Source: Acidimicrobiales bacterium (GTDB lineage Bacteria; Actinomycetota; Acidimicrobiia; Acidimicrobiales; DASWMK01). From it: a stretch of 43,429 nt of DNA. Positions 9,344 through 24,944 of the stretch are shown piece after piece (position 1 is the first letter of the stretch; every line of letters begins with the position of its first letter). The notes beneath the pieces are model-generated. The model searched no databases and was not told the DNA's origin. It saw only the letters and a list, made by a program, of their open reading frames with translations. The translations under genes were made by a program, and so were the position numbers. The stretch spans positions 1 to 43,429 of the forward strand of contig DASWMK010000142.1 in NCBI GenBank assembly GCA_036399815.1. The letters are read 5' to 3'.

Positions 9344-12300
9344 TCACCGGCCCGTGCGGTCGAGGACCTCGGCGAGGCGCTCGGCGAGGGTGTCGACGTG
9401 GGGCGGCTGGAGGACGGTGCCGTGGAACCCGGTGATCCGCTCGGTGGCCACCCCGCCCGTGGCGAAGCGGCCCCAGCCGAGGGTGGGGTCGTCGCCGTCG
9501 GACCGGTCGCCCCGCAGGAGGGTCAGCCGGCCCGGGTAGGGCGGCGGCGCGTAGGCCAGCGCGGCCCGCAGGTTCGACCGCTGCACCCGCTTGATCGTGC
9601 TCAGCGCCACGCCGTCGCGGCCGGGGCCCGAGCGGCGCTGGCGGCCGTAGCGGGCCCGCGTCCACGCGGCGACGAGGGCCGACGCCCCCGGCACGGTCTC
9701 GAGCTCGGTGGTCAGCCGCTTCACCCGGCGGCGCAGCCGGCCCCGCCTGGTCGGGGGCAGGAAGCCGAGCACGCCGGGGGCGAAGCTCTCGACGACGACG
9801 GTGGCCGCCACCTCCTCGCCGGCGGCGACCAGCTGGCGGGCCATCTCGAAGGCGATCTGGCCGCCCAGGCACACGCCGGCCACCAGGTACGGGCCGCGGG
9901 GCTGCACCGCCCGCACCTCGTCCACGTAGTGGGCGGCCATGTCCTCGATCCGGGTGTCCGGCTCGTAGCCGGCGAGGCCGCGGGGCTGGAGGGCGTAGAG
10001 GGGCCGGTCGGGGTCGAGGCGGTCGACCAGGTGGCGCACGTTCAGGCCGGCGACGAGGTGCAGCGGCGCCTTGGTCCCCTGCGTCCTGATCGGGACCAGC
10101 GACGCCCGCTCCCCGCCGGCGGTCGCGTCGCGGAGCAGCGGGGCCAGCCGGGCGACCGTGGGCGCCTCGAACAGCGTGACGAGCGGGAGCCGCCGGCCGA
10201 CGAGGTCCTCGGTGCGGTGCATGACCCGCACGGCGAGCAGCGAGTCGCCGCCCAGCCGGAAGAAGTCGTCGTGCACGCCGACCCGGTCGACGCCGAGGGC
10301 CTCGGCCCACAGGCCGGCGAGCGCCTCCTCGAGCTCGCCCGTCGGCGCCACGTACTCGTCGCCCAGCTCGGGCCGACCCGGGTCGGGGGCGGGGAGGGCG
10401 GTGCGGTCGAGCTTGCCGCTCGGCGTGGTCGGCAGCGCGTCGAGGACGACGAACGCGGCGGGGACCATGTACGGCGCCAGCCGGCCGGCGAGCCGGTCCC
10501 GCAGCTCGGGCAGGTGGGACGGCGCCCAGCCCGGCCCGGGAACGAGGTAGGCGACGAGGCGCTTCTTGCCGGGCTCGTCCTCCCGGGCGACGACGACGGC
10601 GTCGGCGACGAGCGGGTGCTCCCGCAGCGCCGCCTCCACCTCGCCCGGCTCGATGCGGTAGCCCCGGAGCTTGACCTGGTGGTCGTTGCGCCCGAGGAAC
10701 TGGAGGTCGCCGCCCGGCAGGTGGCGGGCCAGGTCGCCCTGGCGGAACATGCGGGCGCCCGGCTCGGGCGCGAACGGGCAGGGCACGAACCGCTCGGCCG
10801 TCAGCTCCGGCCGGTGCAGGTAGCCGAGCGCCACCTGGGCGCCGCCGATGCAGATCTCGCCGGGCACGCCGACGGGCACGGGCCGCAGCCTGGTGTCGAC
10901 CAGGTAGACGGCGGCGTTGGCGATGGGCCGGCCGATCGGCGGCCGGCGGGGCCACGTGGCCGGCGGCCCCTCGAGCGTGTACGAGGTGATGATGAGGTCC
11001 TCGGACGACCCGTACTGGTTCTGGAACCGGCATCCGGGCAGCCGCTCGAAGAAGCGCTGCACGGTCGGCGTGATCGTCACCGCCTCGCCGGCCGTGAACA
11101 CCTCGCGCAGGTGCGAGGGGGCGAGGTCGAGGCGGTCGACGGCGTCGGCCAGCTGCTGGAGCGGCGTGAAGATGGCGTAGAGCTGCTCGACCCGCTGGTC
11201 GACCAGCAGGCGCAGGAGCGCCTCGGGGTCGCGGCGCACGTCGCCCTCGGGGAGCACGAGCGTCCCGCCGGCGGCCCACGTGGCGAACAGCTCCTGCATC
11301 GAGACGTCGAAGCTGAGCGGCGAGAACTGGAGCGTGCGGGGGCGCTCGAGCGTGCTCGCCTCCCGTACCTGCCAGAGGACCACGTTGACGAGCGCCCGCT
11401 GGGGCACGGCCGCGCCCTTCGGCCGGCCCGTCGAGCCCGACGTGTAGATGACGTAGGCGAGGTCGTCGGGGCCGGCCGGGTTGGGCGGCGGGGTGGCCGG
11501 CTGGGCGGCGAGGACGTCGTCCATGGCGTCGAGGTGGACGACCGCGTCGGCGGTGGCGGCGTCGAGGTGGCACATGTCCGTCTGGGTCACGAGGACGGCC
11601 GCCCTGGCGTCGTCGAGGATGAAGGCCAGGCGCTCGCCGGGGTAGGTCGTGTCGAGCGGGAGGTAGGCGCCGCCGGCCTTGAAGATGGCGAGCACGGCGG
11701 CGACGAGGTCGAGGGAGCGCTCGGCGTAGACGGCCACGATGACGCCGGGTCCGACCCCGAGCGAGCGGAGGTGGTGGGCCAGCCGGTTGGCCCGCTCGTC
11801 CAGCTGGGCGTACGTGAGCGAGGCGGCCCCGTGCACGGCGGCGACGGCGTCGGGCGTGCGCGCCGCCTGCTCGGCCACGAGGCGGTCGACGGTGCGGTCG
11901 GCCGACCAGTCCCTCGCCGTGTCGTTCAGCTCGACCAGCACGTGGTGGCGCTCGGCCTCGGTCAGGAGGTCGACGTCGTCGACGGCCACGCCGGGGTCGG
12001 CCACGAACGCGTCGACCACGTTCAGGAAGTGGCCGGCGGCGGCCGCCCGCAGGCGCTCGTCGAACACCCCGGCGTTGAACGTCAGGTCGACCGCGGCCGA
12101 CCCCGACCCGTCGAGGTCGTGGACCTGCACGCCGAACGTGTGCCGCCCGTCGTTGGCCGACCGGGGGACGAACCGGGTCGTCGTCGGCGCGCCGTCGAAG
12201 GGCGGGAACGAGATCGGCAGGTAGTTGAGCATCACGTCGGTGACGGCCGGGTCGCCGGCGTTGCCGGTGCCGGGCGGCGAGTTGGCGATCACCTCCCACA

Positions 12301-13243
12301 GGCCCCGGAGGGCCTCGGCCGTGAGCGAGGCCATGGTCTCGCCGTCGCCCACCTCGAGGCGCAGCGGGTACACCTGCTGGACGAGGCCGATCGTCGCCCT
12401 CGTGGCCCGGTCCCGGTTGTGGAACGGGAGCCCGATCGACAGCTCCCGGGTGCCGCTCACCCGGTACAGGTAGGCGGCGAGGATGGCGCACCACATGCCG
12501 AGCACCGAGAGGTCGGCGCTGAGCGACCGGAAGCCGTCGGTGGCGGCGAGGTCGCGCAGCCGGCGGGTCCGCTCGGGCCCGAGGTCGAGCGTCACCCACC
12601 GCTCCCCGGTCGTGCGCCGGGCCCGGCTCACGCCGTAGGGCTCGAGCGGCTCGTGCTCGCGCTCGAGCACGGCCCGCCAGTGGGCGTCGGCCCGCCGCCA
12701 CGCCTCCGTGTCGCGGGCGGCCGCCTCCCTGGCGACGTGGTCGGCGAAGGACGGCAGCGGCGGACGTCCGGCGGGGCCGCGGGCGTACGCCTCGGCCGTC
12801 TCCCGGTACACGAGCAGGCACGACCAGCCGTCGTGGAGGAGGTGGTGCAGGTTCAGGTACCACGCCGTCCGGTCGGGGCCCAGGTCGACCAGCACCGAGT
12901 CGAACAGCCGCTCGTCGAGGCGCGACGGGCGCCCGGCCCGGTCGGCCGCCCACGCCGGCAGGTCCTCCGCGTCGAGGCGCACGACCGGCGTGCGGTGGGC
13001 GAGCTCGGGCAGCACCCGCTGGACGGGCACGCCGTCGACGGTCTCGACGACCGTGCGCAGCGCGTCGCTGCGGTCCACCACCGACTGGAAGGCGGCGGCG
13101 AAGCGGTCGGGGTCGAGGCGGCGCTCGACCACGAACGTGGTCGCGTTGTCGTAGCAGGCGACGTCGCCGGCGAGCTGCTGGCCGGCCCAGAGGACGAGCT
13201 GCCCGTTCGTCAGGTTGCAGCCCGGCGCGACCCGTGTCGCCAT
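9344..13243 (-). CDS. Single-module NRPS: condensation, adenylation, carrier protein, thioesterase
   Basis: 1299 aa. The condensation domain (about 1-430) has the active-site motif HHLLHDG near 133-139. The adenylation domain (about 455-950) shows YTSGSTGRPKG (A3), the SFDVSMQE binding-pocket strand, NQYGSSED (A5), MFRQGDLAR (A7), KLRGYRIEPGE (A8) and PSGKLDR (A10 Lys). The carrier domain has LGGDSLLAV with the phosphopantetheine Ser near 999. The thioesterase (about 1040-1299) has GVCLGG, a Cys nucleophile near 1124 in place of the usual Ser, and His near 1282 in PPHVD. By eye the ten-residue pocket code reads DVQYFAQIIK, closest to proline codes. An N-terminal C domain implies a donor delivered by another carrier, perhaps the ACP at 16980. 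A Shine-Dalgarno-like GGGAGGG precedes ATG 13243. Confidence 0.93.
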   Translation of the reverse strand: MATRVAPGCNLTNGQLVLWAGQQLAGDVACYDNATTFVVERRLDPDRFAAAFQSVVDRSDALRTVVETVDGVPVQRVLPELAHRTPVVRLDAEDLPAWAADRAGRPSRLDERLFDSVLVDLGPDRTAWYLNLHHLLHDGWSCLLVYRETAEAYARGPAGRPPLPSFADHVAREAAARDTEAWRRADAHWRAVLEREHEPLEPYGVSRARRTTGERWVTLDLGPERTRRLRDLAATDGFRSLSADLSVLGMWCAILAAYLYRVSGTRELSIGLPFHNRDRATRATIGLVQQVYPLRLEVGDGETMASLTAEALRGLWEVIANSPPGTGNAGDPAVTDVMLNYLPISFPPFDGAPTTTRFVPRSANDGRHTFGVQVHDLDGSGSAAVDLTFNAGVFDERLRAAAAGHFLNVVDAFVADPGVAVDDVDLLTEAERHHVLVELNDTARDWSADRTVDRLVAEQAARTPDAVAAVHGAASLTYAQLDERANRLAHHLRSLGVGPGVIVAVYAERSLDLVAAVLAIFKAGGAYLPLDTTYPGERLAFILDDARAAVLVTQTDMCHLDAATADAVVHLDAMDDVLAAQPATPPPNPAGPDDLAYVIYTSGSTGRPKGAAVPQRALVNVVLWQVREASTLERPRTLQFSPLSFDVSMQELFATWAAGGTLVLPEGDVRRDPEALLRLLVDQRVEQLYAIFTPLQQLADAVDRLDLAPSHLREVFTAGEAVTITPTVQRFFERLPGCRFQNQYGSSEDLIITSYTLEGPPATWPRRPPIGRPIANAAVYLVDTRLRPVPVGVPGEICIGGAQVALGYLHRPELTAERFVPCPFAPEPGARMFRQGDLARHLPGGDLQFLGRNDHQVKLRGYRIEPGEVEAALREHPLVADAVVVAREDEPGKKRLVAYLVPGPGWAPSHLPELRDRLAGRLAPYMVPAAFVVLDALPTTPSGKLDRTALPAPDPGRPELGDEYVAPTGELEEALAGLWAEALGVDRVGVHDDFFRLGGDSLLAVRVMHRTEDLVGRRLPLVTLFEAPTVARLAPLLRDATAGGERASLVPIRTQGTKAPLHLVAGLNVRHLVDRLDPDRPLYALQPRGLAGYEPDTRIEDMAAHYVDEVRAVQPRGPYLVAGVCLGGQIAFEMARQLVAAGEEVAATVVVESFAPGVLGFLPPTRRGRLRRRVKRLTTELETVPGASALVAAWTRARYGRQRRSGPGRDGVALSTIKRVQRSNLRAALAYAPPPYPGRLTLLRGDRSDGDDPTLGWGRFATGGVATERITGFHGTVLQPPHVDTLAERLAEVLDRTGR

Positions 13244-13277
13244 CCGCCCTCCCTCCCCGCGGCGATGACGCGGGCGG

Positions 13278-13283
13278 ACGGTA
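13278..13283 (-). promoter_or_regulatory. Candidate -10 box of the NRPS gene
   Basis: TACCGT on the minus strand, 34 bases before the NRPS ATG, fits the actinobacterial TAnnnT -10 pattern and would leave a leader of about 28 nt holding a GGGAGGG ribosome-binding site. No convincing -35 is visible. It lies in the short divergent region shared with the ABC transporter. Confidence 0.35.
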
Positions 13284-13298
13284 CCACCGGGCGGTGGC

Positions 13299-13304
13299 TA
13301 CGCT
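13299..13304 (+). promoter_or_regulatory. Candidate -10 box of the ABC transporter gene
   Basis: TACGCT, ten bases before GTG 13315, matches TAnnnT. Transcription would start only a few bases before the GTG, so a nearly leaderless mRNA is expected; this was used to choose the start. Confidence 0.35.
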
Positions 13305-13314
13305 CCCCGAGCCA

Positions 13315-15066
13315 GTGGGCCGAGCCGAACCAGCCCGCGCCTGGCGGACCCTCCGGCGGGTGGTGGACGTGCCGCGCCGGCGCGTCGCGCTGCTCGGCGC
13401 CACCGCCGCGCTGGCCGGCGTGGCCGACGCCGCCGTGCTCGTGCTCGTCGTCCGCATCGCCGTCGCCGTCGTGGGCGGCGACCGCTCCTCCACGGCGCTC
13501 GGGCCGCTCGACCTCGACCGGTCCACCCCGGCCCTGTTCGGGCTGGCCGCCGGCCTCGCCGTCGCCCGCCTGCTGCTGTCGGCCGCGTCGGCCTGGCTGA
13601 TGGCCGACCTCGCCGCGACCGCCCTCGGCCGCATGCGCAAGCGCACGTTCGCCTGCTTCGTCGAGGCGTCGTGGTCGACCCAGGCGGCCGAGCGGGACGG
13701 CCACCTCCAGGACCTGATGACCACCCACACCACGCGGGTGGCGCTCTCCCTCGTCAGCCTCGCCGCCGGCCTGGTCGCCCTCCTCAACCTCGTCGCCCTG
13801 CTGCTGACCGCGTTCGTGGTCGACCCGATCGCCTCGCTCGTCGCCATGGCCGGCACGGCCCTGCTGTTCGTGGCGCTGCGCCCGCTCGTGCTCGCGGCCA
13901 AGGCGCAGAGCGCGGCGGCCAACGCCGCCAACCTCGAGTACGTGGAGGCGGTGGCCGAGAGCGTGGCCATGGCCGAGGAGACCCACGCGTTCGCGGCCGG
14001 CCCGGCGCTGCGCCGGCGGGTCGACCGGCTGGTCGACGCCGTCGTGGCCCGCGTGCTCCGCACCCAGGCCCTCGGCCGGCTGTTGCCGTCGCTCAACCAG
14101 TCCCTCGCCGTCGGGCTGGTGCTGGCCGGCCTGCTCGCCGCCCACCTCGCGGGCGGGGCCGAGGCCGCCTCCCTCGGCGCCGTCGTCCTCCTCCTGGTGC
14201 GGACGCTCACCTACAGCCAGGGCCTCCAGTCGGCCTACCAGCAGGTCCTCGAGGTGGTGCCCTTCGCCGAGCGGCTGGGCGACGAGCAGGCCCGCTACCG
14301 GCTGGCCGCCGTGCCCCGCCGGGGCGCGCCGCTCGGCCCCGTCCGTTCGGTCGCCCTCGACCACGTGTCGTTCCGGTACCGGCCCGGGCCGCCGGTGCTC
14401 GACGACGTGTCGTTCACGGTGGCGGCGGGCGAGACGGTCGGGATCGTCGGGCCGTCGGGCGCCGGCAAGTCGACCCTCGTCCAGCTGCTCGTGCGGCTCC
14501 GGCCGGCGAGCGAGGGCGCCGTCCTGGTGAACGGGGCCGACGCCTGGTCGTTCTCGCCCGACGACTGGTGCCGCCGGGTCGCCTACCTCCCGCAGGCGCC
14601 CCGCCTGTTCGGCGGGACCGTCGCCGACAACATCCGCTTCTTCCGCGACGGCGTGGGCGACGACGCGGTCGAGGCCGCGGCCCGCCTGGCCCACGTGCAC
14701 GACGAGATCGTCGCCTGGCCCGACGGCTACCGGACGCCGGCCGGGCCGCGGGGCGGCGAGCTCTCCGGCGGCCAGCGCCAGCGCATCTGCCTGGCCCGCG
14801 CCCTGCTCCTGCGCCCTGACGTGCTCGTGCTCGACGAGCCGACCAGCGCGCTCGACCCCCACTCGGAGGCGCTCGTGCGGGACACCCTCCTCGCGCTCCA
14901 GGGCACGATGACCGTGTTCGTCGTCGCCCACCGCCTGACCGCGCTCACGAACTGCGACCGGATCATGGTCCTCGGCGACGGGCGGGTGCAGGCCTTCGAC
15001 CGGGCGGCCGACGTGGCCGCCTCGAACCGCTGGTACCGCGACGCCGTGCGCCTCTGGGAGGCCTGA
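13315..15066 (+). CDS. ABC exporter, fused permease and ATPase
   Basis: 583 aa half-transporter. Six hydrophobic helices fill about residues 20-300. The nucleotide-binding domain follows with Walker A GPSGAGKST, Q-loop YLPQAPRLF, signature LSGGQRQR, Walker B VLVLDEPT and the H-loop VVAHRL. This is the type IV exporter fold (MsbA/lipid and peptide exporters), which works as a homodimer. It is transcribed divergently from the NRPS and lies one base before the PaiB/KtzT-like gene, so it is probably the export and self-resistance component of the cluster. The start is uncertain: GTG 13315 was chosen from the upstream -10-like box, GTG 13294 is also in frame, and the frame is open from 13234. Confidence 0.9.
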   Translation: MGRAEPARAWRTLRRVVDVPRRRVALLGATAALAGVADAAVLVLVVRIAVAVVGGDRSSTALGPLDLDRSTPALFGLAAGLAVARLLLSAASAWLMADLAATALGRMRKRTFACFVEASWSTQAAERDGHLQDLMTTHTTRVALSLVSLAAGLVALLNLVALLLTAFVVDPIASLVAMAGTALLFVALRPLVLAAKAQSAAANAANLEYVEAVAESVAMAEETHAFAAGPALRRRVDRLVDAVVARVLRTQALGRLLPSLNQSLAVGLVLAGLLAAHLAGGAEAASLGAVVLLLVRTLTYSQGLQSAYQQVLEVVPFAERLGDEQARYRLAAVPRRGAPLGPVRSVALDHVSFRYRPGPPVLDDVSFTVAAGETVGIVGPSGAGKSTLVQLLVRLRPASEGAVLVNGADAWSFSPDDWCRRVAYLPQAPRLFGGTVADNIRFFRDGVGDDAVEAAARLAHVHDEIVAWPDGYRTPAGPRGGELSGGQRQRICLARALLLRPDVLVLDEPTSALDPHSEALVRDTLLALQGTMTVFVVAHRLTALTNCDRIMVLGDGRVQAFDRAADVAASNRWYRDAVRLWEA

Positions 15067-15067
15067 C

Positions 15068-15685
15068 GTGTACCCGCCCCCCGCTTACCACGTGACCGAC
15101 CCCGAGCTCGCCCACCGGGCCATCGACGCCTTCCCGCTGGCCGCCGTGGTGTCCACCGGCCCGGACGGCCTCGTCGCCACCCACATCCCGCTCCTCGTCG
15201 AGCGCACCGGCGGGGCCGGCACGCTCATCGGCCACCTCGACCGCGAGAACCCGCACGTGGGCCTGCTCGACGGCGCCGACGTCCTCGCCCTCTTCCGCGG
15301 GCCCGACACCTACATCTCGCCCACGACCTACGTGACCCGGCAGCTGCCGACGTGGAACTACGTGTTCGTCGAGGCGCGGGGGACGGCCCGCCTGGTGGAG
15401 GACCCCGAGCGGGTGCGGTCGTTCCTCGTGCGCCTGATCGACCACGTCGAGCCCCGGCCCGGCGGCTGGGCGCTGGCCGACGACGACCGGCGGGTGCCGC
15501 CGCTGCTGCCCCACATCGTCGGCGTGGAGATCCCGCTGCGCTCGATCGAGGGCCGGTTCAAGTTCTCCCAGGAGAAGGTCGAGGCCGACCGGGAGCGGGC
15601 CGCGGAGCGGATGCTCGGCGTCAGCTCGCCGGACGGGCGGCGCTTCCTCCACGAGGTGCTGGGCTACGACGGCCGAGCCGGGTGA
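15068..15685 (+). CDS. PaiB-fold protein, candidate heme-dependent piperazate synthase (KtzT-like)
   Basis: 205 aa split-barrel protein of the family annotated as FMN-binding negative transcriptional regulator (PaiB). It shows STGPDGLVATHIPLL (28-43), GHLDRENPH (55-63), YISPTTY (82-88), PTWNY (94-98) and the C-terminal GRFKFSQEK. KtzT, which makes the N-N bond of piperazic acid from N5-hydroxyornithine with heme, belongs to this family and is encoded beside an ornithine N-hydroxylase. Here the convergent neighbour is such an N-hydroxylase and an NRPS is close by, so a biosynthetic role is more likely than regulation. His56 or His63 could be the axial heme ligand; this is a guess from position. 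No DNA-binding domain is seen. The last 65 nt overlap the end of the neighbouring gene. Confidence 0.75.
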   Translation: MYPPPAYHVTDPELAHRAIDAFPLAAVVSTGPDGLVATHIPLLVERTGGAGTLIGHLDRENPHVGLLDGADVLALFRGPDTYISPTTYVTRQLPTWNYVFVEARGTARLVEDPERVRSFLVRLIDHVEPRPGGWALADDDRRVPPLLPHIVGVEIPLRSIEGRFKFSQEKVEADRERAAERMLGVSSPDGRRFLHEVLGYDGRAG

Positions 15686-16961
15686 GCAGCGACTCGACGA
15701 CGGTGCCGGCCCGGAGGGCGACCATGCTGAACGACGCCCCGTCGCTCGGCCCGTGCGTCCGCTCGGACGTGCCGCACAGGTACACCGGCGCGTCGAGGCC
15801 GCCCGTCGTCGCCACCCGGTAGTCCCGGCCGACGACCGGCCCGCCGTCCTCGTCGGTCGCCACCAGGTCGGCGAGCGGCGCCAGCGCGGCCGGGAACACG
15901 TCCTCGCGGTAGCCGGTGCAGAGGACGACGACGTCGGCCGCCACCTCCTCGCGCTCGCCGGTGTGGAGGTGCTCGAGCACGAGGCGGTGGGTGCCGGCCA
16001 CCGTCGACGCACCGACGACGCGCCGGCTGGTCAGCACGTCGACCCGGCGGACGCCGGCCACCAGGTCCTCGTACAGCCTGCGGTAGAGCACGTCGGCGGC
16101 CTGGGCGTCGACCACGCCGAAGTTCGTCGGCCGGGCCTCGGCGAGCACGGCCCGGCGGGCGGCGGGGCCGAGGGCGTGGAACCGGTCGACGAAGCCCGGG
16201 TGGAAGACCTCGTTGCTGAACTGGCACAGGTCGACGTGGCGGAACCCGAGCGTCCGGTGGACCGAGACCAGCCGGGCGCGCGGGAAGGTCGCGTGCAGGT
16301 GGGCGAGGACCTCGACCGCGCTCTCGCCCGAGCCGACGACGGCGAAGCGCAGGGCGGCGTCGCGGTCGAGCCCGTCGACGGCGGTCAGGAACGCGGAGGA
16401 GTGGAACGCCGTCGGCCCGGCGAGGGCGGCGAGCTCGGGTGGGACGTGGGGCGCCCGGCCCGAGGACAGCACCAGCGCCCTCGCCGCCACCGTCCCGTCG
16501 CTCGTCTCGACGGCCAGCCGGTCCCGGCCGAGCGGCCGGACGGCGACCACCTCGGTGCCATAGCGGACGTACCCGGCGAGCTGGCCGGCGGCCCAGCGCA
16601 GGTAGTCCGACCACTCCAGCCGGCTGACGGCACCGCCGGCCGCGCCGAGCAGCAGCTCGCCGAACTCGTAGAGGCGCCCGTGCTCGTGGAGGTAGTTGAC
16701 GAACGTGAACCGGCTCCGCGGGTTCCTCGGCGTGGCGAGGTCGCGGAGGAAGTGGTGCTGGATGTCGGTCTCCCGCAGCAGCATCCCGGGGTGCCAGGCG
16801 ACCTCGGGCGCCCGCTCGAGGAAGCGCACCCGCCCGAGCGGCGGTCCACCGCTCGCCTCGGCCAGGTCCTCGACGGCGCAGGCGAGGGCGATGCCGGCCG
16901 GGCCGAAGCCGGCCCCGAGCACGTCCACCTCCTCCGGTACAGTCCGCCGCGGGGCGGTCAC
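15621..16961 (-). CDS. SidA/IucD/PvdA-family amine N-hydroxylase (flavin monooxygenase)
   Basis: 446 aa. FAD-binding LGAGFGPAGIALA starts at residue 15; WHPGMLLRETDIQ and FLRDLATPRNPRSRFTFVNYL are family hallmarks; the NADPH site is VVGSGESAVEVL; VVLCTGYRED and GLLxx-type C-terminal motifs follow. Family members N-hydroxylate the side-chain amine of ornithine, lysine or diamines, for siderophores or, as in KtzI, for piperazic acid. Ornithine enzymes usually read FLKDL where this one has FLRDL, so the substrate is not certain. GTG 16961 is the longest start; GTG 16928 or 16922, the latter after GGAGGAG, would begin right at the FAD motif. It is convergent with the KtzT-like gene and diverges from the carrier-protein gene. 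Confidence 0.88.
   Translation of the reverse strand: MTAPRRTVPEEVDVLGAGFGPAGIALACAVEDLAEASGGPPLGRVRFLERAPEVAWHPGMLLRETDIQHHFLRDLATPRNPRSRFTFVNYLHEHGRLYEFGELLLGAAGGAVSRLEWSDYLRWAAGQLAGYVRYGTEVVAVRPLGRDRLAVETSDGTVAARALVLSSGRAPHVPPELAALAGPTAFHSSAFLTAVDGLDRDAALRFAVVGSGESAVEVLAHLHATFPRARLVSVHRTLGFRHVDLCQFSNEVFHPGFVDRFHALGPAARRAVLAEARPTNFGVVDAQAADVLYRRLYEDLVAGVRRVDVLTSRRVVGASTVAGTHRLVLEHLHTGEREEVAADVVVLCTGYREDVFPAALAPLADLVATDEDGGPVVGRDYRVATTGGLDAPVYLCGTSERTHGPSDGASFSMVALRAGTVVESLLTRLGRRSPAPRGGSAARPAS
16938..16943 (+). promoter_or_regulatory. Candidate -10 box of the ACP-KAS-halogenase operon
   Basis: TACAGT lies 36 bases before the ACP ATG, and the leader then contains GGGAGGGGGG, a ribosome-binding site. 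It overlaps the 5' end of the divergent N-hydroxylase gene. Confidence 0.35.
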
Positions 16962-16979: not shown

Positions 16980-17234
16980 ATGGAGCAGGTCGACACCGTC
17001 GAGGCGGAGGTCCGCGACTTCCTGGTGGCGACGTTCTGGATGGAGCCGGCGTTCGCCGAGGCCATGACCGACGACAGCGACCTCGTCGACGGCGGCGTCC
17101 TCGACTCGATGAACGTCCTCCAGCTGGTCGACTTCCTCGAGGAGCGCTTCGACTTCATGCTCGACCCCGAGGAGCTGTTCCGGCTGACCACCGTGGCGAA
17201 CATCGCCGCGCTGGTCCGCGAGAAGCTGGCATGA
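16980..17234 (+). CDS. Free-standing acyl/peptidyl carrier protein
   Basis: 84 aa, acidic, four-helix carrier protein. The attachment motif is GGVLDSMNVLQLV with Ser43 as the phosphopantetheine site; this spelling (LDSM rather than LDSL) is closer to DltC-like and NRPS-associated carriers than to fatty-acid ACP. A purine-rich Shine-Dalgarno (GGGAGGGGGG) lies upstream of the ATG. The stop overlaps the next start as ATGA, so translation is coupled to the KAS-like gene. It probably holds the substrate acted on by the KAS-like pair, the SDR and the halogenase, and may hand it to the NRPS condensation domain. Confidence 0.88.
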   Translation: MEQVDTVEAEVRDFLVATFWMEPAFAEAMTDDSDLVDGGVLDSMNVLQLVDFLEERFDFMLDPEELFRLTTVANIAALVREKLA

Positions 17235-18220
17235 CCCCCGTCGGGATCGCCGCCACGGCGACCGCCTTCCCCCCGTCGACGCGCCCCATCGCCGACATCT
17301 TCGCCGACGAGGGCGTGGACCTGCCGGGGGAGCTGGCCGAGCGCCTCGGCATCCGGGAGGTGGGGGTCGGCTCGGCGGGCGCCGACCTGGCGCTCGCCGC
17401 CGCCACCGACGCGCTGGCCGCCGCCGGAGCGGCGGGCCGGGACGTCGACGTGATCGTCGACTACACGATCCTGCCCCAGGAGTACCTCGTGCCGGTGTGG
17501 AACCTGGGCAACCGGCTCCAGCACGAGCTCGGGGCGACCAGGGCGTTCACGCTCGGGTTCAGCGGCGGCGGGGCCACCAACTTCCACGTCGCCCTGCGGG
17601 CGGCGACCGACCTGCTGCGGGCCGGCGACGGGCTGCGGACGGCGCTGCTGTTCGGCGCGGACGTCGCCATCCCCGGCAACCGGGTGGTCGAGCGCGACGA
17701 GCCCGTGACCGTCCTCGGCGACGGGGCCAGCGCCGTCGTGCTGCGGGCCGGCGAGGAGCACGACGTGGTGCTCGGCGTGGAGCTGGCGAGCGACGGCGCC
17801 TACCACGACGTGGCCCACATCCCCGGCGGCGCGCTCGCCCAGCTCGACCACGACCACGACGAGGACCTGTACCGGCTGCGGATCGACGTCGACCGGCTGG
17901 CGGCGGCGCCGACGGGCGCCACCGTCGACCGCCTCACGGGCCTGGTGCTCGACCGGGCCGGCGCCGGCCGCGACGACGTCGCCCACTGGGTCTGCCCGAA
18001 CCTGTCGGCCGCCGACCAGGACGGCTACCGGGCGGCGTGGGGGGCGGCGCCGGCGCCGGCCTGCGCGGCCAACCTGGCCGCCCACGGGCACGTGCAGGCC
18101 AACGACCTCGTCGCCAACCTCCGGGCCGTCGTGGCCGACGGGTGCGACGGCGGCGACCTCGTGCTCCTGGCCTCCCACGGGATGGGCTTCACCGCCGGCG
18201 CGGCCCTGGTGCGGCACTGA
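17231..18220 (+). CDS. KAS III-like protein lacking the active-site cysteine
   Basis: 329 aa thiolase-fold protein related to 3-oxoacyl-ACP synthase III. Aligned by eye with its neighbour at 18220, the nucleophile position reads Ala115 in SGGGATNFH. The FabH His position is Asn257 (CPNLSAADQ), and the FabH Asn position is His287 (AHGHVQAND). It therefore lacks the normal Cys-His-Asn triad and is unlikely to condense acyl groups alone. PqsB of the PqsBC heterodimer is a known precedent for a Cys-less partner of an active KAS III-like subunit. Overlap of start and stop with both neighbours supports co-translation with the second KAS-like protein. It may instead bind or transfer an acyl or amino group. 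Confidence 0.85.
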   Translation: MTPVGIAATATAFPPSTRPIADIFADEGVDLPGELAERLGIREVGVGSAGADLALAAATDALAAAGAAGRDVDVIVDYTILPQEYLVPVWNLGNRLQHELGATRAFTLGFSGGGATNFHVALRAATDLLRAGDGLRTALLFGADVAIPGNRVVERDEPVTVLGDGASAVVLRAGEEHDVVLGVELASDGAYHDVAHIPGGALAQLDHDHDEDLYRLRIDVDRLAAAPTGATVDRLTGLVLDRAGAGRDDVAHWVCPNLSAADQDGYRAAWGAAPAPACAANLAAHGHVQANDLVANLRAVVADGCDGGDLVLLASHGMGFTAGAALVRH

Positions 18221-19236
18221 TGGGCGCGCCGATCGGGATCCTGGCGGAGGCCTGCTACCTGCCGCCCACCACCAAGTCGATCGACGCCGTGTTCCGGGAC
18301 GAGGACGTGCCCGACGACCCGCTGCCCGGCGGCGTGGACTTCCGGCGGGACATCGGCATCCGGTCGATCCGGGTGGCGGACGGGGAGACGGCGAGCGGGC
18401 TCGCCGTCGAGGCGTCGCGCCGGGCCGTCGAGCGGGCCGGCATCGACCCGGAGGAGATCGACCTCGTCGTCGGGTTCACCAGCATCGCCGAGGACCACGT
18501 GGCGCCCACCTGGTCGGCGGCCGGCGTCGTCCAGCGGGAGGTCGGCGCCACCCGGGCCTTCGCCACGTCGGTCAACACCGGCGGCTGCGCCAGCTTCCAC
18601 GCCACGATGAAGGCGGCCTGCTCGATGCTGGCGGCCAGCGACGAGATGGACACGGCGCTGCTGTTCGCCGGGGACAAGGCACCCCGCCTGAACCACGCCT
18701 ACTACCCGGTCACCGTCGTGTGTGACGGCGGCAGCGCGGTCGTGCTGCGCAAGGGCCACGACCGCCGGGTGGTGCTGGCCGTGGAGACCGCGACCGTCGG
18801 GAAGCTCCACGACGTGCTCTACGCGCCCGGGTTCCCGCACCGCGACCCGTCCGACCCGTGCCGGGACCGGTGGCTGCACATGACCGGCGACTACCGCCGC
18901 TTCGGCGAGGAGGTGGTGCCCGTCAACCTGTTCATGTTCCGCCGGGTGATGCGGGCGGCCATGAAGCGGGCCGGCGTCGGGCCCGACGACATCGACGTGT
19001 ACATCTACCCGACGTTCTCGGCCTGGGACCAGCGGGCCTTCTGCGAGGGCCTCGGCATCCCGCCGGAGAAGGTGTACACGCGGGGGCTGGCCGACCACGG
19101 CCACCTCCAGGAGACCGACATGGTCCTCAACCACGTGGACGCGGAGGAGGACGGCACCATCGGGGACGGCGACCTCGTGATGCTGACCACCAACGGGGCC
19201 GGGTTCGCGTGGGGGGCCACGATCGTCCGCCAGTGA
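18220..19236 (+). CDS. KAS III-like acyltransferase with cysteine nucleophile and altered triad
   Basis: 338 aa thiolase-fold protein. Cys123 lies in NTGGCASFH, the FabH-type nucleophile. The usual His position reads Thr265 (YPTFSAWDQ) and the usual Asn position reads His295 (DHGHLQETD), so the pocket may work with a Cys/His pair arranged differently from FabH. The glycine-rich C-terminus TTNGAGFAWGA is typical of the family. The start overlaps the previous stop as TGATG and the stop overlaps the next start as GTGA. It most likely pairs with the Cys-less paralogue to acylate or condense a substrate on the carrier protein. It could also esterify or amidate a product, as CerJ-type KAS-like acyltransferases do. 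Confidence 0.85.
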   Translation: MGAPIGILAEACYLPPTTKSIDAVFRDEDVPDDPLPGGVDFRRDIGIRSIRVADGETASGLAVEASRRAVERAGIDPEEIDLVVGFTSIAEDHVAPTWSAAGVVQREVGATRAFATSVNTGGCASFHATMKAACSMLAASDEMDTALLFAGDKAPRLNHAYYPVTVVCDGGSAVVLRKGHDRRVVLAVETATVGKLHDVLYAPGFPHRDPSDPCRDRWLHMTGDYRRFGEEVVPVNLFMFRRVMRAAMKRAGVGPDDIDVYIYPTFSAWDQRAFCEGLGIPPEKVYTRGLADHGHLQETDMVLNHVDAEEDGTIGDGDLVMLTTNGAGFAWGATIVRQ

Positions 19237-20912
19237 CCGCCGCGGCCGGCGCGGGCGCCGGCGACCGCTACGACGTGGCCGTGCTGGGCAGCGGCATGAG
19301 CGGCGCGGCGCTCGCCATCGTCCTCGCCGCGCAGGGCGTGCGAGTGGTGATGGTCGAGTCCGGCGTGCACCCCCGCTTCGCCGTCGGCGAGTCCACCATC
19401 CCCCACACCTCGCTGCTCAGCTCGCTTCTGGCCGAGCGCTACGGCGTGCCCGAGCTCGACGTGATCGCCTACCCGGAGCGCATCGCCGCGGAGGTGTGCT
19501 CGACGTGCGGGGTGAAGCGGGGCTTCGGCTACGCCTACCACCGCCCCGGCGAGGAGCACGACCCGGCCGAGGGGCTGCTCGTCGGGACGAGCTCGAAAGA
19601 CGAGACGCACGTGTTCCGCCAGGACGTCGACGCCTGGCTCACGTACATGGCGGTGCGGCGGGGTGCCGACCTGCGCCAGGCGACGGTGGTCGACCGGGTG
19701 GAGGTCGACGGGGCCGGGGTCACGCTCGGCACGACCGGGGGCGACGAGCTCCGGGCCCGCTACCTGGTCGACGGCTCGGGCTTCCGCAGCGTGCTCGCCC
19801 GCACGTTCTCGCTGCGGGAGGCGCCGGCCCGCTTCGGGCACCACTCCCGCTCGCTGTTCACCCACATGGTCGACGTCGGCACGTTCGCCCCCGACACGCC
19901 GATGTCGATCCCGTGGGCGCAGACCACGCTGCACCACGTCTTCGACCGGGGCTGGTTCTGGGTCATCCCGTTCGACAACCGGGAGGGGTCGACCAACCCG
20001 CTCGTCAGCGTCGGGCTGACCGTCGACCCCCGGGTGCACCCGAAGCCGGCCGGCGTGGCGCCCGAGGCCGAGTTCCGGGCCTTCCTCGACCGCTTCCCGT
20101 CGGTGGCCCGCCAGTTCGCCGGGGCCAGGGCCGTCCGCCCATGGGTGTCGACCGACCGGCTCCAGTACTCGACGACGCGGGGGGTCGGCGAGCGCTGGTG
20201 CCTGATGTCGCACGCCTACGGCGCCATCGACCCCCTGTTCTCCCGGGGCCTCGTGAACACCCTCGAGGTCACCGCCGCGCTGGTGCCGACCCTGCTCGAC
20301 GCCCTCGACGACGACGACTTCTCGGTGGAGCGCTTCACCCACGTCGACGCCCTTCACCGGCGGGTGCTCGACTACAACGACCGCCTGGTCGCCGGCTCGT
20401 TCGCGTCGTGGGCCGACTTCGACCTGTGGAACGCGTGGCTGCGGGTGTGGGGGCTCGGCACCATCCCCGTCGAGTTCCGAATGATGAACGCGCTGGCCGA
20501 CTACACGGCCACCCACGACCCCCGCCACCTCACCGGGCCGGTCGCCGACCCCGTCTTCTCGGACTTCGAGGACCCCGACTACGGCGCCTACTTCGCCGAG
20601 GCGGTGGCGCTGATGGACGGGTTCCGCTCGGGCCGGTCGCCGGCCGGGGAGACGGCCGCCGCGCTGTTCGACCTCGGCACGCGCTACGAGATCCCGCTGC
20701 CCATGCGGGGCGACGGCCTGCACCGGGCCGGCTGGATCCCGGCCGACGACGCCATGAGCGAGCGGAGCATGGCCTTCGCCCGGGAGGGGTTCAGGTGGGC
20801 GCTCACCAACCCCGGCACCCACGACCTGTTCGGCACGACGACGACGTTCTACCGGTGGCGGGCCCGGCGGTCCGACCCGCACCTCGCGGTCGCCGGCCGC
20901 GCTCCCGGGTAG
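19233..20912 (+). CDS. Flavin-dependent halogenase-like oxidoreductase
   Basis: 559 aa. FAD-binding LGSGMSGAALA starts near residue 18. WFWVIP at 241-246 matches the WxWxIP motif that separates flavin halogenases from monooxygenases. FDNREGSTNPLVSVG (247-261) fits the Fx(n)PxxSxG motif. Lys95 in CGVKRGFGY is a candidate for the catalytic Lys that carries HOX. AVGESTIPHTS resembles the isoalloxazine loop of the family. The partner flavin reductase is not in the window. Its place after ACP and KAS-like genes suggests a carrier-bound substrate. A non-halogenating role is possible, since distant members are often misnamed. The start GTG overlaps the upstream stop. Confidence 0.85.
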   Translation: MTAAAGAGAGDRYDVAVLGSGMSGAALAIVLAAQGVRVVMVESGVHPRFAVGESTIPHTSLLSSLLAERYGVPELDVIAYPERIAAEVCSTCGVKRGFGYAYHRPGEEHDPAEGLLVGTSSKDETHVFRQDVDAWLTYMAVRRGADLRQATVVDRVEVDGAGVTLGTTGGDELRARYLVDGSGFRSVLARTFSLREAPARFGHHSRSLFTHMVDVGTFAPDTPMSIPWAQTTLHHVFDRGWFWVIPFDNREGSTNPLVSVGLTVDPRVHPKPAGVAPEAEFRAFLDRFPSVARQFAGARAVRPWVSTDRLQYSTTRGVGERWCLMSHAYGAIDPLFSRGLVNTLEVTAALVPTLLDALDDDDFSVERFTHVDALHRRVLDYNDRLVAGSFASWADFDLWNAWLRVWGLGTIPVEFRMMNALADYTATHDPRHLTGPVADPVFSDFEDPDYGAYFAEAVALMDGFRSGRSPAGETAAALFDLGTRYEIPLPMRGDGLHRAGWIPADDAMSERSMAFAREGFRWALTNPGTHDLFGTTTTFYRWRARRSDPHLAVAGRAPG

Positions 20913-20922: not shown

Positions 20923-21753
20923 ATGAGCGACGAGGCACGCACCGTCCTGGTCACCGGGGCGAACTCCGGCATCGGCCTGGCCACCGTGGTCGAGCTGGCG
21001 AGGCGCGGCTTCCGGGCCGTCGGCTCGGTCCGCTCGGAGGCCAAGGCCGCCGCCGTGCGCGAGGCGGCGAGCGCCGCCGGGGTCGACGTCGAGACCGTCC
21101 TGCTCGACGTGAACGACGCCGAGGCCTGCAAGGAGGTCGTCCCCGGGCTCGGCCCGTGGGGGCTCGTGAACAACGCCGGCTACGCCGTCACCGGCGCCGT
21201 CGAGGACGTGGAGGACGAGGAGGCCGAGGCGCTGTTCCAGACCATGGTCCACGCGCCGATGCGCCTGGCCCGGCTGGCTCTCCCGTCGATGCGGGCCGCG
21301 GGGGGCGGCCGGATCGTCAACGTCAGCTCGATCGCCGGGCGGGTGACGGCGCCGTTCGCCGGCCACTACACGGCGGCCAAGCACGCGCTCGAGGCGCTCA
21401 CCGACGCCCTGCGCATCGAGGTGGCGGGCGCCGGCGTGCGGGTCGTGCTGGTCGAGCCGGGCGGGTTCCGCACCGGCATCTGGGAGGAGTTCGAGCGGGA
21501 CATCGCCAGGCGGGAGCGGGAGGGCAGCCGCTACGTCGGCGCCTACCGCCGCTACCTCCAGGCCCAGCGCCTGGCCGAGCCGCTGATGGGCGACCCGCAG
21601 ACGTGCGCCCGGGTCATCGCCGGCGCGCTCACGACCCGCCTGCCCCGGTCCCGCTACCTGGTCGGCCTCGACGCCCAGGCCGCCAACCTGGCCGACTCGC
21701 TGACCCCGACGATCGTCAAGGACCGCTTCTACCGGCTGACGCTCGGTCTGTAG
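20923..21753 (+). CDS. Short-chain dehydrogenase/reductase
   Basis: 276 aa classical SDR. It has the Rossmann motif TGANSGIG near residue 11, NNAG, the catalytic Ser in IVNVSSIAG, YTAAK (Tyr and Lys) and the PGGFRTG segment. It probably reduces a keto group or oxidises an alcohol with NAD(P)H. Being the last gene of the ACP-KAS-halogenase run, it may act as a ketoreductase on the same carrier-bound intermediate. An internal promoter-like element could allow separate expression. Its last 38 nt overlap the 3' end of the convergent SARP regulator. Confidence 0.9.
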   Translation: MSDEARTVLVTGANSGIGLATVVELARRGFRAVGSVRSEAKAAAVREAASAAGVDVETVLLDVNDAEACKEVVPGLGPWGLVNNAGYAVTGAVEDVEDEEAEALFQTMVHAPMRLARLALPSMRAAGGGRIVNVSSIAGRVTAPFAGHYTAAKHALEALTDALRIEVAGAGVRVVLVEPGGFRTGIWEEFERDIARREREGSRYVGAYRRYLQAQRLAEPLMGDPQTCARVIAGALTTRLPRSRYLVGLDAQAANLADSLTPTIVKDRFYRLTLGL

Positions 21754-24700
21754 CGGCGTCCGGCAGGTCGACGCCGAGGTCGGCGGCGACCCGCTCGGCC
21801 AGGCGGGCCAGGCCGTGCGCGCCCTGGGCGGTGGCCACCGCCACGGCCTCGGCCAGCCGGGCGGCGGCCGCCTCCCGGTCGCCCCTCGCCGCGGCCACGA
21901 CGGCCTCGGCCCGGAGCACGACGGGCTCGTTCCAGCGCTCGCCCAGCCGCTCCAGGGTCTCCCTCGCCGTGGCGATCGCCGCCTCGGCCTCGTCCAGGCA
22001 CCCGGCGCCGGCCGCGGCGACGGCCCAGCTGGCGTCGTGGGTCGGGAGGGCGGCGCCGCCGCCGACGGCCAGGTAGCGGGCCCTCGCCTCGGTGAACAGA
22101 CGCCGGCCCTCGTCCACCTCGCCCCGGCGGGCCATGGCGGCGGCGAGGCCCATCAGCGCGTGCCCGCCGTAGTACGAGAAGTCGCCGTTGGGGTCGACGG
22201 CGAGCAGCGTGCGACCGGCCCGCTCGGCCAGCCCGAGGTCGTCGACGGCCTCGCCCAGCACGGCCGCGAACCCGGCGACCTCGGTGAGCACGAACGAGTC
22301 GGCGGTCAGGTCGAGCAGGCGGTGCATGGCCGCCACGGACGGGGCGACATCGCCGGCCAGCGCCCGCATCTGCGCCCGGAACAGCTGGACGAGCAGGGTG
22401 CGCTCGCCGGCGAACTCGAGCGACGGGTCGACCGGCGCACCCGCCGCCCGCCGGTCGGCGGCCAGGTCGAGGGACCGGCAGGCGTCGGTGATGCGGCCCT
22501 CCTGCCAGGCCTGCACGGCCGTCTGGAGGTGGCCGAAGGCCTGGACGTCGGGGTCGTCGCTGGCCAGGGCCACCCGGGCGAGGGCGGCGGCCAGCGGGGC
22601 GGCGTCGGCCACCCTGGCCGCCGTCGCCGCCGCCGACGTCTCCACCCACAGCACGTCGAGCAGCACGTCGTCCCGGCCCGTCCTGGCGGCCAGCTCCTTG
22701 GCCCGGTCGATCAGCTGGGGGGTGGTGGCGGCGGCGAAGTAGCGCCGGGCGCGGGCCACGGCCAGCAGGCGGTGGATGGCGAGCAGCTCGGCCTCCTCGT
22801 CGGCGGGCGAGGTGGCGGTGGACCGGCGCAGCTCGACCGCCCGGCGCAGGAGCTGCTCGGCCGAGCCGAGGGCCGAGCGGCGGATGGCGACGTCGGCGGC
22901 GTGCTCGAGCGCGCTCGCCGCCCGCTGCCCGCCGCCGACGGGCACGGCCCGCCACAGGTGCTCGGCCAGCACCTCGGCGTCGTCGTCGCCCACCCCGGTG
23001 ACCTCCATGGCCTCGGCGGCCCGGAGGTGCAGGCGGGCCCGGCGCAGCGACGACAGGTCCTCGACCAGCACCTCGCGCACGAGCGCGTGGCAGAACCGGA
23101 ACGTGGACGGGCGGTCGGGCACGTCGAGCAGGAGGCGGTGGACGACGGCCGGCTCCAGCCGGTCGAGCAGGAAGTCGGTGGACAGGCCCGAGGTGCGGGT
23201 CAGCAGGCCGAGCTCGACGTCCCGGCCGAGCACGGCGCCCACGGCCAGCAGCTCCCTGGTCGGCTCGGGCAGGTGGGCCAGGCGCCGGCGGATGACGTCG
23301 CCCACCCCGGCGGGCACCACACCGGCGAGGTCGGTGCGCTCGTCGTCGAGCACCAGCCGGGCCAGCTCGGTGGCGTAGAACGGGTTGCCGTCCGAGCGGG
23401 CGTGGATGGCGACGGCCACGTCCCGGTCCACGGCCGGGCCGAGGAGGGCCTCGACCAGCGCCACCGTGTCCTCGCGGGGCAGGCGGCGGAGGTGGAGCCG
23501 GCGGGAGCCGGGGCGGCGGGCCACGGCGGCCAGCGCCTCCGTCAGGGCGTCGTTGCGGCCGACCTCGAGCCGGCGCATGGTGAGGAGCAGGAGCACGCCC
23601 CGGCCCAGGCGGGCGCTCAGGAACGAGAGCAGGTCGAGCGAGGTCTCGTCGGCCCACTGGAGGTCGTCGAGCACGACCACGACCACCCCGGCGGCGGCCG
23701 CCGTCCGCTCCAGGAACCGGGCGACGGCCTCGAACCGCTCGAACTGGAGCGCGTTGGTGGGCGTGGCCGCCTCGGGGGCGTCGGTGGCCAGCAGGGCGTC
23801 GAGCGACGGGTCGCCGGTGCCGGCGCCGCCGGCCAGGTCCCGCAGGGCGACCAGCCACGGCCACAGCGCGGGCGCGGCGCCGCCCTCGTAGCCCCGGCCC
23901 CAGGCGACGGCCCCGCCGCGGGCGGCGGCCTCGGCCCTGAGCTCCTCGGCCAGGCGGGTCTTGCCCATCCCGGGCTCGCCCTCGACGACCACGACCCTCG
24001 CCTCGGCCGCCGCCTCGTCCAGGGCGGCCAGCACCTCGGCCAGCTCGTCGCGCCGGCCGATCATCCCCCTCGGGCGGGCCGGGGCCGCAGCCGGCGCGGC
24101 GGCGGCCGGCGCCGGGGCGGCCGCCGGCGGCTCGGCGAGGTCGATGGCCGGGTCGTGGCCGAGGATGGCCGCCTCCAGCTCCCGCAGCGGGCGGCTCGGG
24201 TCGACGCCCAGCTCGTCGCGCAGGGTGCGGCGGGCGTCCTCCAGCGCCCGGAGGGCGTCGGCCTGGCGGCCCGAGCGGTAGAGGGCGAGGGCGAGGTGGG
24301 CCCGGAGGCGCTCGCGGAGGGGATGGGCGCCGACCAGCTCGGCCAGCTCGCCGGCGACGGCGGCGGCGCGGCCGAGGCGCAGGTCGGCGTCGACCCGGTC
24401 CTCGGTGGCGGCCAGGCGCCGCTCCTCCAGCCGGGTGGCGAGGCCGGTGGCGAAGTCGCGGTCGAGGAACTCGAGCAGGGCCGGCCCCCGCCACAGGGCG
24501 TCGGCGGCCAGCAGGACGTCGCGGGCCTCGGCCGGCCGGCCGGCGTCGAGCAGGGCCCGCCCCTCGTCGGCCAGGGCCTCGAAGCGCAGGAAGTCCACCT
24601 CGGCCCCGGCCACGTCGAGGCGGTAGCCGGGGTCCTCCCACAGCAGGCGGGGCGCCGTCGGCCCGGCCCCGAACCGGCGGCGCAGGCGGGACACCGTGCT

Positions 24701-24892: not shown

Positions 24893-24944
24893 TCGCCGTC
24901 CTCCCGGCGAGAGTTTCGCGCGGGCGGACGGGCGCGGCGGCGAG

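What the first reader, a model, noticed from the sequence alone, without database searches (positions are those of the whole stretch)
15068..16961. PaiB-fold protein paired with an amine N-hydroxylase: likely N-N bond formation
The gene that automated pipelines would call an FMN-binding negative regulator sits tail-to-tail with a SidA/PvdA/KtzI-type N-hydroxylase inside an NRPS cluster. KtzT-type piperazate synthases come from the same family and occur in exactly this pairing. The two genes overlap by 65 nt at their ends, so they are physically tied.
Basis: partly seen in the sequence, partly recalled or inferred. Interest (0 to 1): 0.75.

Follow-up and report, generated by a model that had tools for sequence, protein, structure and literature searches.

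The report
Third family of hydroxylamine-processing heme enzymes
A gene that databases would call a DNA-binding regulator sits next to an amine-hydroxylating enzyme and belongs to a small, well-separated branch whose four known members are all beside, or fused to, such an enzyme; it is probably a heme enzyme that removes water from the hydroxylated amine, and it is not one of the known enzymes that build the nitrogen-nitrogen bond of piperazic acid.

Summary
In detail: 15068-15685(+) encodes a 205-aa FMN_bind_2/PaiB-fold protein and 15621-16961(-) a Lys/Orn N-monooxygenase (NMO), overlapping tail-to-tail by 65 nt beside a single-module NRPS. The protein is not PaiB background: with three homologues it forms a clade (bootstrap/SH-aLRT 100/99) in which every member has an NMO partner (same operon in Paraburkholderia and Mycetohabitans, fused in one ORF in a Streptomyces NRPS cluster), against 0 of 79 other nearest homologues. 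But it is not a KtzT-type piperazate synthase. AU tests reject placement inside that clade (p=0.001). It lacks the synthase residues N/A/Y at the three active-site positions that PDB depositors swapped when turning the N-hydroxylamine dehydratase NohD towards a synthase (NohD A/V/R; window D/L/R). The NRPS A domain has a proline-like code (DVQFFAQIIK), not the piperazate code (DVFSxAxYAK). The partner NMO has Arg where ornithine NMOs have an essential substrate-carboxylate Lys. Best reading: a heme enzyme that dehydrates the NMO's hydroxylamine to an imine, in a third NMO-linked clade beside the piperazate synthase/NohD clade. N-N bond formation on a non-ornithine diamine stays open. No product has been tested.

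The parts
15068..15685 (+). PaiB-fold (FMN_bind_2) protein, 205 aa; proposed heme-dependent N-hydroxylamine-processing enzyme of a third NMO-linked clade
   Evidence: ORF; PF04299 E=2e-42; clade 100/99; AF2 pLDDT 93.3, best fold match NohD 9oqt E=2.7e-18
15621..16961 (-). flavin-dependent amine N-monooxygenase (SidA/PvdA/KtzI superfamily), 446 aa, with Arg in place of the carboxylate-binding Lys
   Evidence: PF13434 E=7e-85; best PDB match 5cqf 345 bits, KtzI 231; motif comparison
15621..15685 (.). 65-nt tail-to-tail overlap of the two genes
15233..15235 (+). His56, aligned with the proximal heme ligand of piperazate synthases (SbPZS His61)
   Evidence: alignment; ligand from PMC13274692; invariant in PaiB-like proteins too
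15239..15241 (+). Asp58: clade-specific; Asn in piperazate synthases, Ala in PaiB-like proteins and NohD
15344..15346 (+). Leu93 in the one-residue-shorter motif QLPTWNY; Ala in piperazate synthases, Val in NohD and PaiB
15350..15352 (+). Thr95, half of the Thr-Lys catalytic dyad (NohD T98)
   Evidence: dyad from PMC11705231
15491..15493 (+). Arg142, same residue as NohD Arg144; Tyr in piperazate synthases (PipS Y155 contacts the substrate carboxylate)
   Evidence: PMC13274692
15560..15562 (+). Lys165, other half of the Thr-Lys dyad (NohD K167)
15572..15574 (+). Glu169: Glu/Asp in synthases, NohD and this clade; Asn in nearly all PaiB-like proteins
9347..13243 (-). single-module NRPS, C-A-T-TE; A-domain code DVQFFAQIIK (proline-like)
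   Evidence: Pfam; code
13234..15066 (+). ABC transporter (permease plus ATPase), one base upstream of the PaiB-fold gene; real start is probably downstream of 13234
16980..17234 (+). free-standing acyl carrier protein
   Evidence: PF00550 E=3e-8
17231..18220 (+). KAS III-like protein lacking the active-site Cys (GGGA)
   Evidence: Pfam; sequence
18217..19236 (+). KAS III-like protein with the active-site Cys (GGCA)
   Evidence: Pfam; sequence; 39% identical to its neighbour
19233..20912 (+). flavin-dependent halogenase of the tetracycline 7-halogenase/PltM type (start approximate)
   Evidence: 7xgb E=1.5e-135
20923..21753 (+). short-chain dehydrogenase
   Evidence: Pfam

Best explanation
The pair is a two-enzyme amine-tailoring unit. 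The NMO hydroxylates a primary amine of a small substrate (an amino acid or diamine, probably not ornithine in the KtzI mode). The PaiB-fold protein, a heme-b homodimer with His56 as proximal ligand and Thr95/Lys165 as proton-relay dyad, activates the N-OH at the heme iron as a nitrenoid. Lacking the synthase arrangement (Asn58/Ala93/Tyr142), it loses water to give an imine, as NohD does, which hydrolyses to an aldehyde or closes to a cyclic imine. A cyclic imino acid of this kind would fit the proline-like A domain. Shown here: fold, family, pairing, clade, residues. Inferred: heme binding, nitrenoid chemistry, imine outcome. Speculative: identity of the substrate and its link to the A domain.
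For: All four members of the clade have an NMO partner (in the same gene cluster or fused), none of 79 other nearest homologues does. Clade support 100/99. Placement inside the piperazate synthases is rejected, p=0.001, and sister to the synthases without NohD, p=0.013. Arg142 matches native NohD Arg144; the PDB entry titles list R144Y, V96A and A59N as the NohD changes towards synthase residues. Window residues are D/L/R against synthase N/A/Y and NohD A/V/R. NohD was crystallised with N-hydroxylated ornithine and heme. Even the synthase PipS only dehydrates N6-OH-lysine and other non-native hydroxylamines (PMC11705231). The A-domain code is not the piperazate code. The top fold match is NohD, though all family structures score nearly alike.
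Against: The window clade is not sister to NohD alone (AU p=0.0105), so shared Arg142 could be convergent or ancestral; 5 of 124 background proteins also have Arg there. Asp58 and the short QLPTWNY loop match neither enzyme type. No NohD paper was found in the library, so its activity rests on PDB titles. Heme binding and activity of the window protein are untested, and the substrate is unknown.
Confidence: 0.5

Rival explanations
1. It is an N-N bond-forming hydrazine synthase acting on a diamine other than N5-hydroxyornithine, giving a cyclic hydrazine that is not piperazate.
For: NMO pairing and a natural NMO fusion resemble KtzI/KtzT and the known didomain NMO-synthases (PMC11705231). Tyr7, Glu169 and Lys170 match residues listed as catalytic in synthases (PMC13274692). 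A clade joining window clade, NohD and synthases is not rejected (p=0.31). Synthases accept several N-hydroxydiamines (PMC12150314). A proline-like A domain could take a cyclic amino acid.
Against: Synthase residues N58, A93, F98, Y142, M163 are all absent; A-domain codes near the pair are not piperazate-like in the window or in the Streptomyces fusion cluster.
Confidence: 0.27
2. It is an ordinary KtzT-type piperazate synthase feeding the NRPS with L-piperazate.
For: Same Pfam family, heme-ligand His, Thr-Lys dyad and NMO neighbour.
Against: AU p=0.001 against membership of the synthase clade; 30-35% identity to synthases; A code DVQFFAQIIK instead of DVFSxAxYAK; NMO Arg for the essential carboxylate Lys (PMC7347517).
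Confidence: 0.06
3. It is a PaiB-type regulator or housekeeping heme protein that lies beside the NMO by chance or regulates the cluster.
For: 36% identical to Geobacillus PaiB, which also binds heme (PMC13274692); the closest sequences by identity are PaiB-like proteins such as those of Pseudomonas, 41-46% depending on the alignment.
Against: Five clade-specific residues shared only by NMO-linked homologues; fusion to an NMO in Streptomyces; PaiB-type F7, A58, K163 and N169 all replaced.
Confidence: 0.07
4. The heme nitrenoid or Lewis-acid step ends in another product (C-N ring closure, oxime or nitrone, or deamination used for breakdown), with the Burkholderiales operons being catabolic.
For: The relatives in Paraburkholderia and Mycetohabitans sit in an operon with HpaB-like and Rieske oxygenases and a diaminobutyrate-type aminotransferase, without NRPS genes; the synthase PAI2 also makes C-N bonds (PMC11705231).
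Against: No direct evidence for any such product; the window and Streptomyces pairs are in biosynthetic clusters.
Confidence: 0.1

Closest known systems
NohD, N-hydroxylamine dehydratase (PDB 9oqs and mutants)
   Same: PaiB fold, aligned heme-ligand His, Thr-Lys dyad, Tyr7, Arg142 (NohD R144), Tyr98, acidic residue at 169; 37% identity; best Foldseek match
   Different: Asp58 instead of Ala, Leu93 with a one-residue-shorter loop instead of Val, Arg163 instead of Met; not a sister of NohD in the tree (AU p=0.0105)
Piperazate synthases KtzT, PipS, SbPZS, LnzB
   Same: fold, His ligand, dyad, Tyr7, Glu/Asp169, partnership with an NMO, natural NMO fusions exist in both
   Different: lacks N58, A93, F98, Y142, M163; outside the clade (p=0.001); neighbouring A domain not of piperazate type
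PaiB (Bacillus/Geobacillus PAI 2; 2ol5, 9vyc)
   Same: fold, heme-ligand His, Asn61, Thr95, Lys165; 36% identity
   Different: PaiB-type F7, A58, K163 and N169 replaced; PaiB is described as lacking N-N activity (PMC13274692)
KtzI/PvdA/SidA/MbtG N-monooxygenases (partner gene)
   Same: full-length family match, conserved Asn and Ser substrate motifs
   Different: SidA K107 position is Arg (HFLRDL), DDSPF altered to DLCQF, TLLS altered to GASFS; the Arg and the TLLS change are shared with the Burkholderiales partners and with 5cqf, not with the Streptomyces fusion

Membership tests
Piperazate synthase (KtzT type) | FMN_bind_2/PaiB fold | tested here: met
   Pfam 2e-42; fold search
Piperazate synthase (KtzT type) | heme-ligand His and Thr-Lys dyad | tested here: met
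   H56, T95, K165; not diagnostic, invariant in PaiB-like proteins
Piperazate synthase (KtzT type) | phylogenetic placement in the synthase clade | tested here: not met
   AU p=0.001; own clade 100/99
Piperazate synthase (KtzT type) | synthase active-site residues N58, A93, Y142 (PipS-type) | tested here: not met
   window D58, L93, R142
Piperazate synthase (KtzT type) | NMO partner gene | tested here: met
   15621-16961
Piperazate synthase (KtzT type) | cluster A domain with the piperazate code | tested here: not met
   DVQFFAQIIK versus DVFSxAxYAK
Piperazate synthase (KtzT type) | converts N5-hydroxyornithine to piperazate | not testable with these tools
   needs enzyme assay
N-hydroxylamine dehydratase (NohD type) | native Arg at the position mutated as R144Y | tested here: met
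   R142 in all four clade members
N-hydroxylamine dehydratase (NohD type) | bulky aliphatic residue where synthases have Ala (V96 in NohD) | tested here: met
   L93 in all four clade members
N-hydroxylamine dehydratase (NohD type) | Ala at the A59 position | tested here: not met
   D58
N-hydroxylamine dehydratase (NohD type) | sister of NohD | tested here: not met
   AU p=0.0105; only a clade with NohD plus synthases is not rejected, p=0.31
N-hydroxylamine dehydratase (NohD type) | dehydrates a hydroxylamine | not testable with these tools
   needs enzyme assay
PaiB regulator | PaiB-like residues F7, A58, K163, N169 | tested here: not met
   window Y7, D58, R163, E169
PaiB regulator | DNA binding | not testable with these tools
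   no assay available
SidA/PvdA/KtzI ornithine N-monooxygenase (partner) | Lys contacting the substrate carboxylate (SidA K107) | tested here: not met
   Arg in the window; Lys107Ala abolishes activity (PMC7347517); Arg may still bind a carboxylate

The most novel reading that the evidence does not exclude
The four-member clade is a third, independent type of NMO-partnered heme enzyme with its own active site (Asp58, QLPTWNY, Arg142, Arg163), taking hydroxylamines other than N5-hydroxyornithine and giving products (an imine-derived ring or an unprecedented hydrazine) that no characterised pathway uses, in both NRPS and non-NRPS operons.
Probability: 0.45. Interest if true: 0.7.

Novelty: new variant of a known kind. 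Interest (0 to 1): 0.52.

Why it matters
PF04299 genes next to NMO genes are commonly taken as markers of piperazate and N-N bonds in genome mining. This clade shows that the rule needs residue-level checks: pairing alone does not separate N-N bond formation from hydroxylamine dehydration. It supplies four concrete NMO-linked pairs, one of them a natural fusion, with a distinct active site in which the choice between N-N coupling and imine formation at a heme can be tested.

Tried and rejected
Scan of genome contigs with the window protein alone found no relative; the alignment query gave 80 loci, nearly all PaiB-like. Residue 142 first looked different from PaiB-like proteins in a quick alignment; a better alignment shows the background is mostly F or Y with 5 Arg, so Tyr142 is not synthase-specific and only the Arg is informative. 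The NohD sequence was first taken from 9oqw, a mutant; and the entry titles corrected this to 9oqs. A wrong reading frame for the halogenase gene was corrected. NMO relatives on plasmids were checked for PaiB-fold neighbours: none in six loci. The NMO genes of order- and class-level relatives have none either within about 1.5 kb. The KAS III pair was not found in 396 other genomes of the phylum or on plasmids, so no sister cluster could be compared. Literature searches found no paper on NohD or this clade. A phylum search centred on the Streptomyces plasmid was not possible.

Full report
What is there. The window is a whole contig of a 4.16-Mb, high-GC draft genome, by its relatives apparently actinobacterial. 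At 15068-15685 (+) lies a 205-aa protein with FMN_bind_2 (PF04299, E=2e-42) and at 15621-16961 (-) a 446-aa Lys/Orn N-monooxygenase (PF13434, E=7e-85). They overlap by 65 nt at their 3' ends. The surroundings are biosynthetic: a C-A-T-TE NRPS module (9347-13243, -), an ABC transporter ending one base before the PaiB-fold gene, an acyl carrier protein, two tandem KAS III-like proteins of which only the second keeps the active-site Cys, a tetracycline 7-halogenase/PltM-type halogenase and an SDR.

Why the family name does not decide the function. By sequence the protein is about equally far from NohD, LnzB, PaiB, SbPZS and KtzT (phmmer E 3e-25 to 1e-21; 30-37% identity). The heme-ligand His (His56 here; His61 in SbPZS), Asn61, Thr95 and Lys165 are present, but they are also present in PaiB, which binds heme without N-N activity (PMC13274692), and in all 109 PaiB-like homologues examined.

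Residues that do separate. Against the background homologues, enzymes (synthases and NohD) carry Tyr7 and Glu/Asp169 where background mostly has Phe and Asn. The window has Tyr7 and Glu169. It has neither the synthase Asn58 nor the background Ala58, but Asp58, and Leu93 in a one-residue-shorter motif QLPTWNY, Arg142 and Arg163. All five of Asp58, Leu93, Arg142, Arg163 and Glu/Asp169 occur together in exactly four proteins of the 134 aligned: the window, Streptomyces sp. NBC_01237 (L116), Paraburkholderia lacunae (L076) and Mycetohabitans rhizoxinica (L117).

These four are the NMO-linked ones. They were collected by PaiB-fold searches, without reference to NMOs. Of the 80 best genome-contig loci, only L076 has an NMO in the flanks held, up to 10 kb. 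In Mycetohabitans the NMO and PaiB-fold genes overlap by 41 nt. In Streptomyces NBC_01237 the two are one ORF with both Pfam domains, next to NRPS modules. In Paraburkholderia an FAD-oxidoreductase gene lies between them. Paraburkholderia and Mycetohabitans share an operon with HpaB-like and Rieske oxygenases and a diaminobutyrate-type aminotransferase, with no NRPS gene in it. L076 and L117 are about 72% identical in the PaiB-fold protein, so this is three lineages, not four independent events.

Phylogeny. A careful tree of 44 proteins gives the four as one clade at 100/99 and NohD plus piperazate synthases (with the PaiB-fold protein from the Pseudonocardia sp. EC080625-04 plasmid locus L147) as another at 100/99. 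AU tests reject the window inside the synthases (p=0.001), the window clade with synthases to the exclusion of NohD (p=0.013) and with NohD to the exclusion of synthases (p=0.0105). A union of the window clade with both is not rejected (p=0.31) but not shown. The groups were named after a first tree had been seen, which makes the p-values somewhat optimistic. So it is a separate NMO-linked clade, possibly sister to all known enzymes of this kind.

Dehydration or N-N bond. PipS forms piperazate from N5-hydroxyornithine but only imines from N6-hydroxylysine and other hydroxylamines (PMC11705231). NohD is deposited as an N-hydroxylamine dehydratase, with N-hydroxylated ornithine in the T98A/K167A mutant; mutants R144Y, V96A and A59N, with N- and C-terminal swaps, replace its residues by synthase ones. 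I read these as the positions the depositors thought decide between the two outcomes; no paper was found, so this is inference from titles and sequences. At R144/V96/A59 the window has R/L/D, the synthases Y/A/N. Two of three are NohD-like, none synthase-like. The NRPS A-domain code DVQFFAQIIK resembles proline codes (DVQFIAHVxK, PMC2866473) and not the piperazate code DVFS(V/I)(A/G)xYAK (PMC3943440, PMC9866976). The GrsA segment used to read the code was typed from general knowledge, so the code is a lead. The A domains next to the Streptomyces fusion are not piperazate-like either.

The partner NMO. Its closest solved structure is 5cqf (345 bits), above MbtG (256), KtzI (231) and PvdA (210). 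The Lys that contacts the substrate carboxylate in SidA (Lys107, essential; PMC7347517) is Arg in the window and in both Burkholderiales partners and 5cqf, with the TLLS motif changed too; the Streptomyces fusion keeps Lys. Substrates of the clade may therefore differ between members.

Structure. AlphaFold2 with a 50-sequence alignment gives pLDDT 93.3; Foldseek ranks NohD 9oqt first (2.7e-18), with synthases and PaiB close behind. The fold is secure; the ranking is not discriminating.

Conclusion. The pair is real and functional linkage is well supported (about 0.8 that the protein acts on the NMO's product). Among outcomes, dehydration to an imine is favoured (0.5), a non-piperazate hydrazine remains possible (0.27), canonical piperazate synthase is unlikely (0.06). 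A genome-neighbourhood network of PF04299 already showed several NMO-linked groups and that homologues with 34% and 25% identity to KtzT do not accept N5-hydroxyornithine (PMC12150314), so the existence of further groups is foreshadowed; the clade and its residues defined here were not found described in the papers searched.

Noticed in passing
L116:18675-20603 (Streptomyces sp. NBC_01237 plasmid NZ_CP108509): Natural fusion of an N-monooxygenase and a PaiB-fold domain in one unannotated ORF, directly upstream of NRPS modules with A codes DVWHFSQECK, DVWHASQEVK and DVWNLAL--K and a dimethylarginine-hydrolase-like gene.
   Followed up: partly
L117:8729-17106 and L076:2142-12067: Conserved operon in Mycetohabitans and Paraburkholderia: TauE-like exporter, HpaB-like hydroxylase, Rieske oxygenase, diaminobutyrate-type aminotransferase, NMO, PaiB-fold protein, zapE, tautomerase; product or role unknown.
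   Followed up: partly
window 17231-19236: Tandem KAS III-like paralogues (39% identical), the first without the active-site Cys; no match at E<=1e-40 in 396 other genomes of the phylum and none on plasmids.
   Followed up: partly
window 19233-20912: Flavin-dependent halogenase very close to tetracycline 7-halogenase (E=1.5e-135) in a cluster where no type II PKS was recognised, so a phenol-type substrate is not obvious.
   Followed up: no
window 9347-13243: TE domain of the NRPS has a GVCLGG motif, a Cys instead of Ser as likely nucleophile.
   Followed up: no
L121, L126, L127, L128, L130, L133, L136: Another well-supported actinobacterial clade (100) of PaiB-fold proteins, several with Asp169 as in the enzymes; no NMO within 1.5 kb.
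   Followed up: no
PDB 5cqf (labelled L-lysine 6-monooxygenase): This solved NMO shares the Arg-for-Lys and the GASFS-type changes with the window NMO; its annotated substrate may deserve a check.
   Followed up: no
window 21719-25171: Large BTAD/AAA-type regulator on the minus strand next to the cluster, a likely pathway regulator.
   Followed up: no
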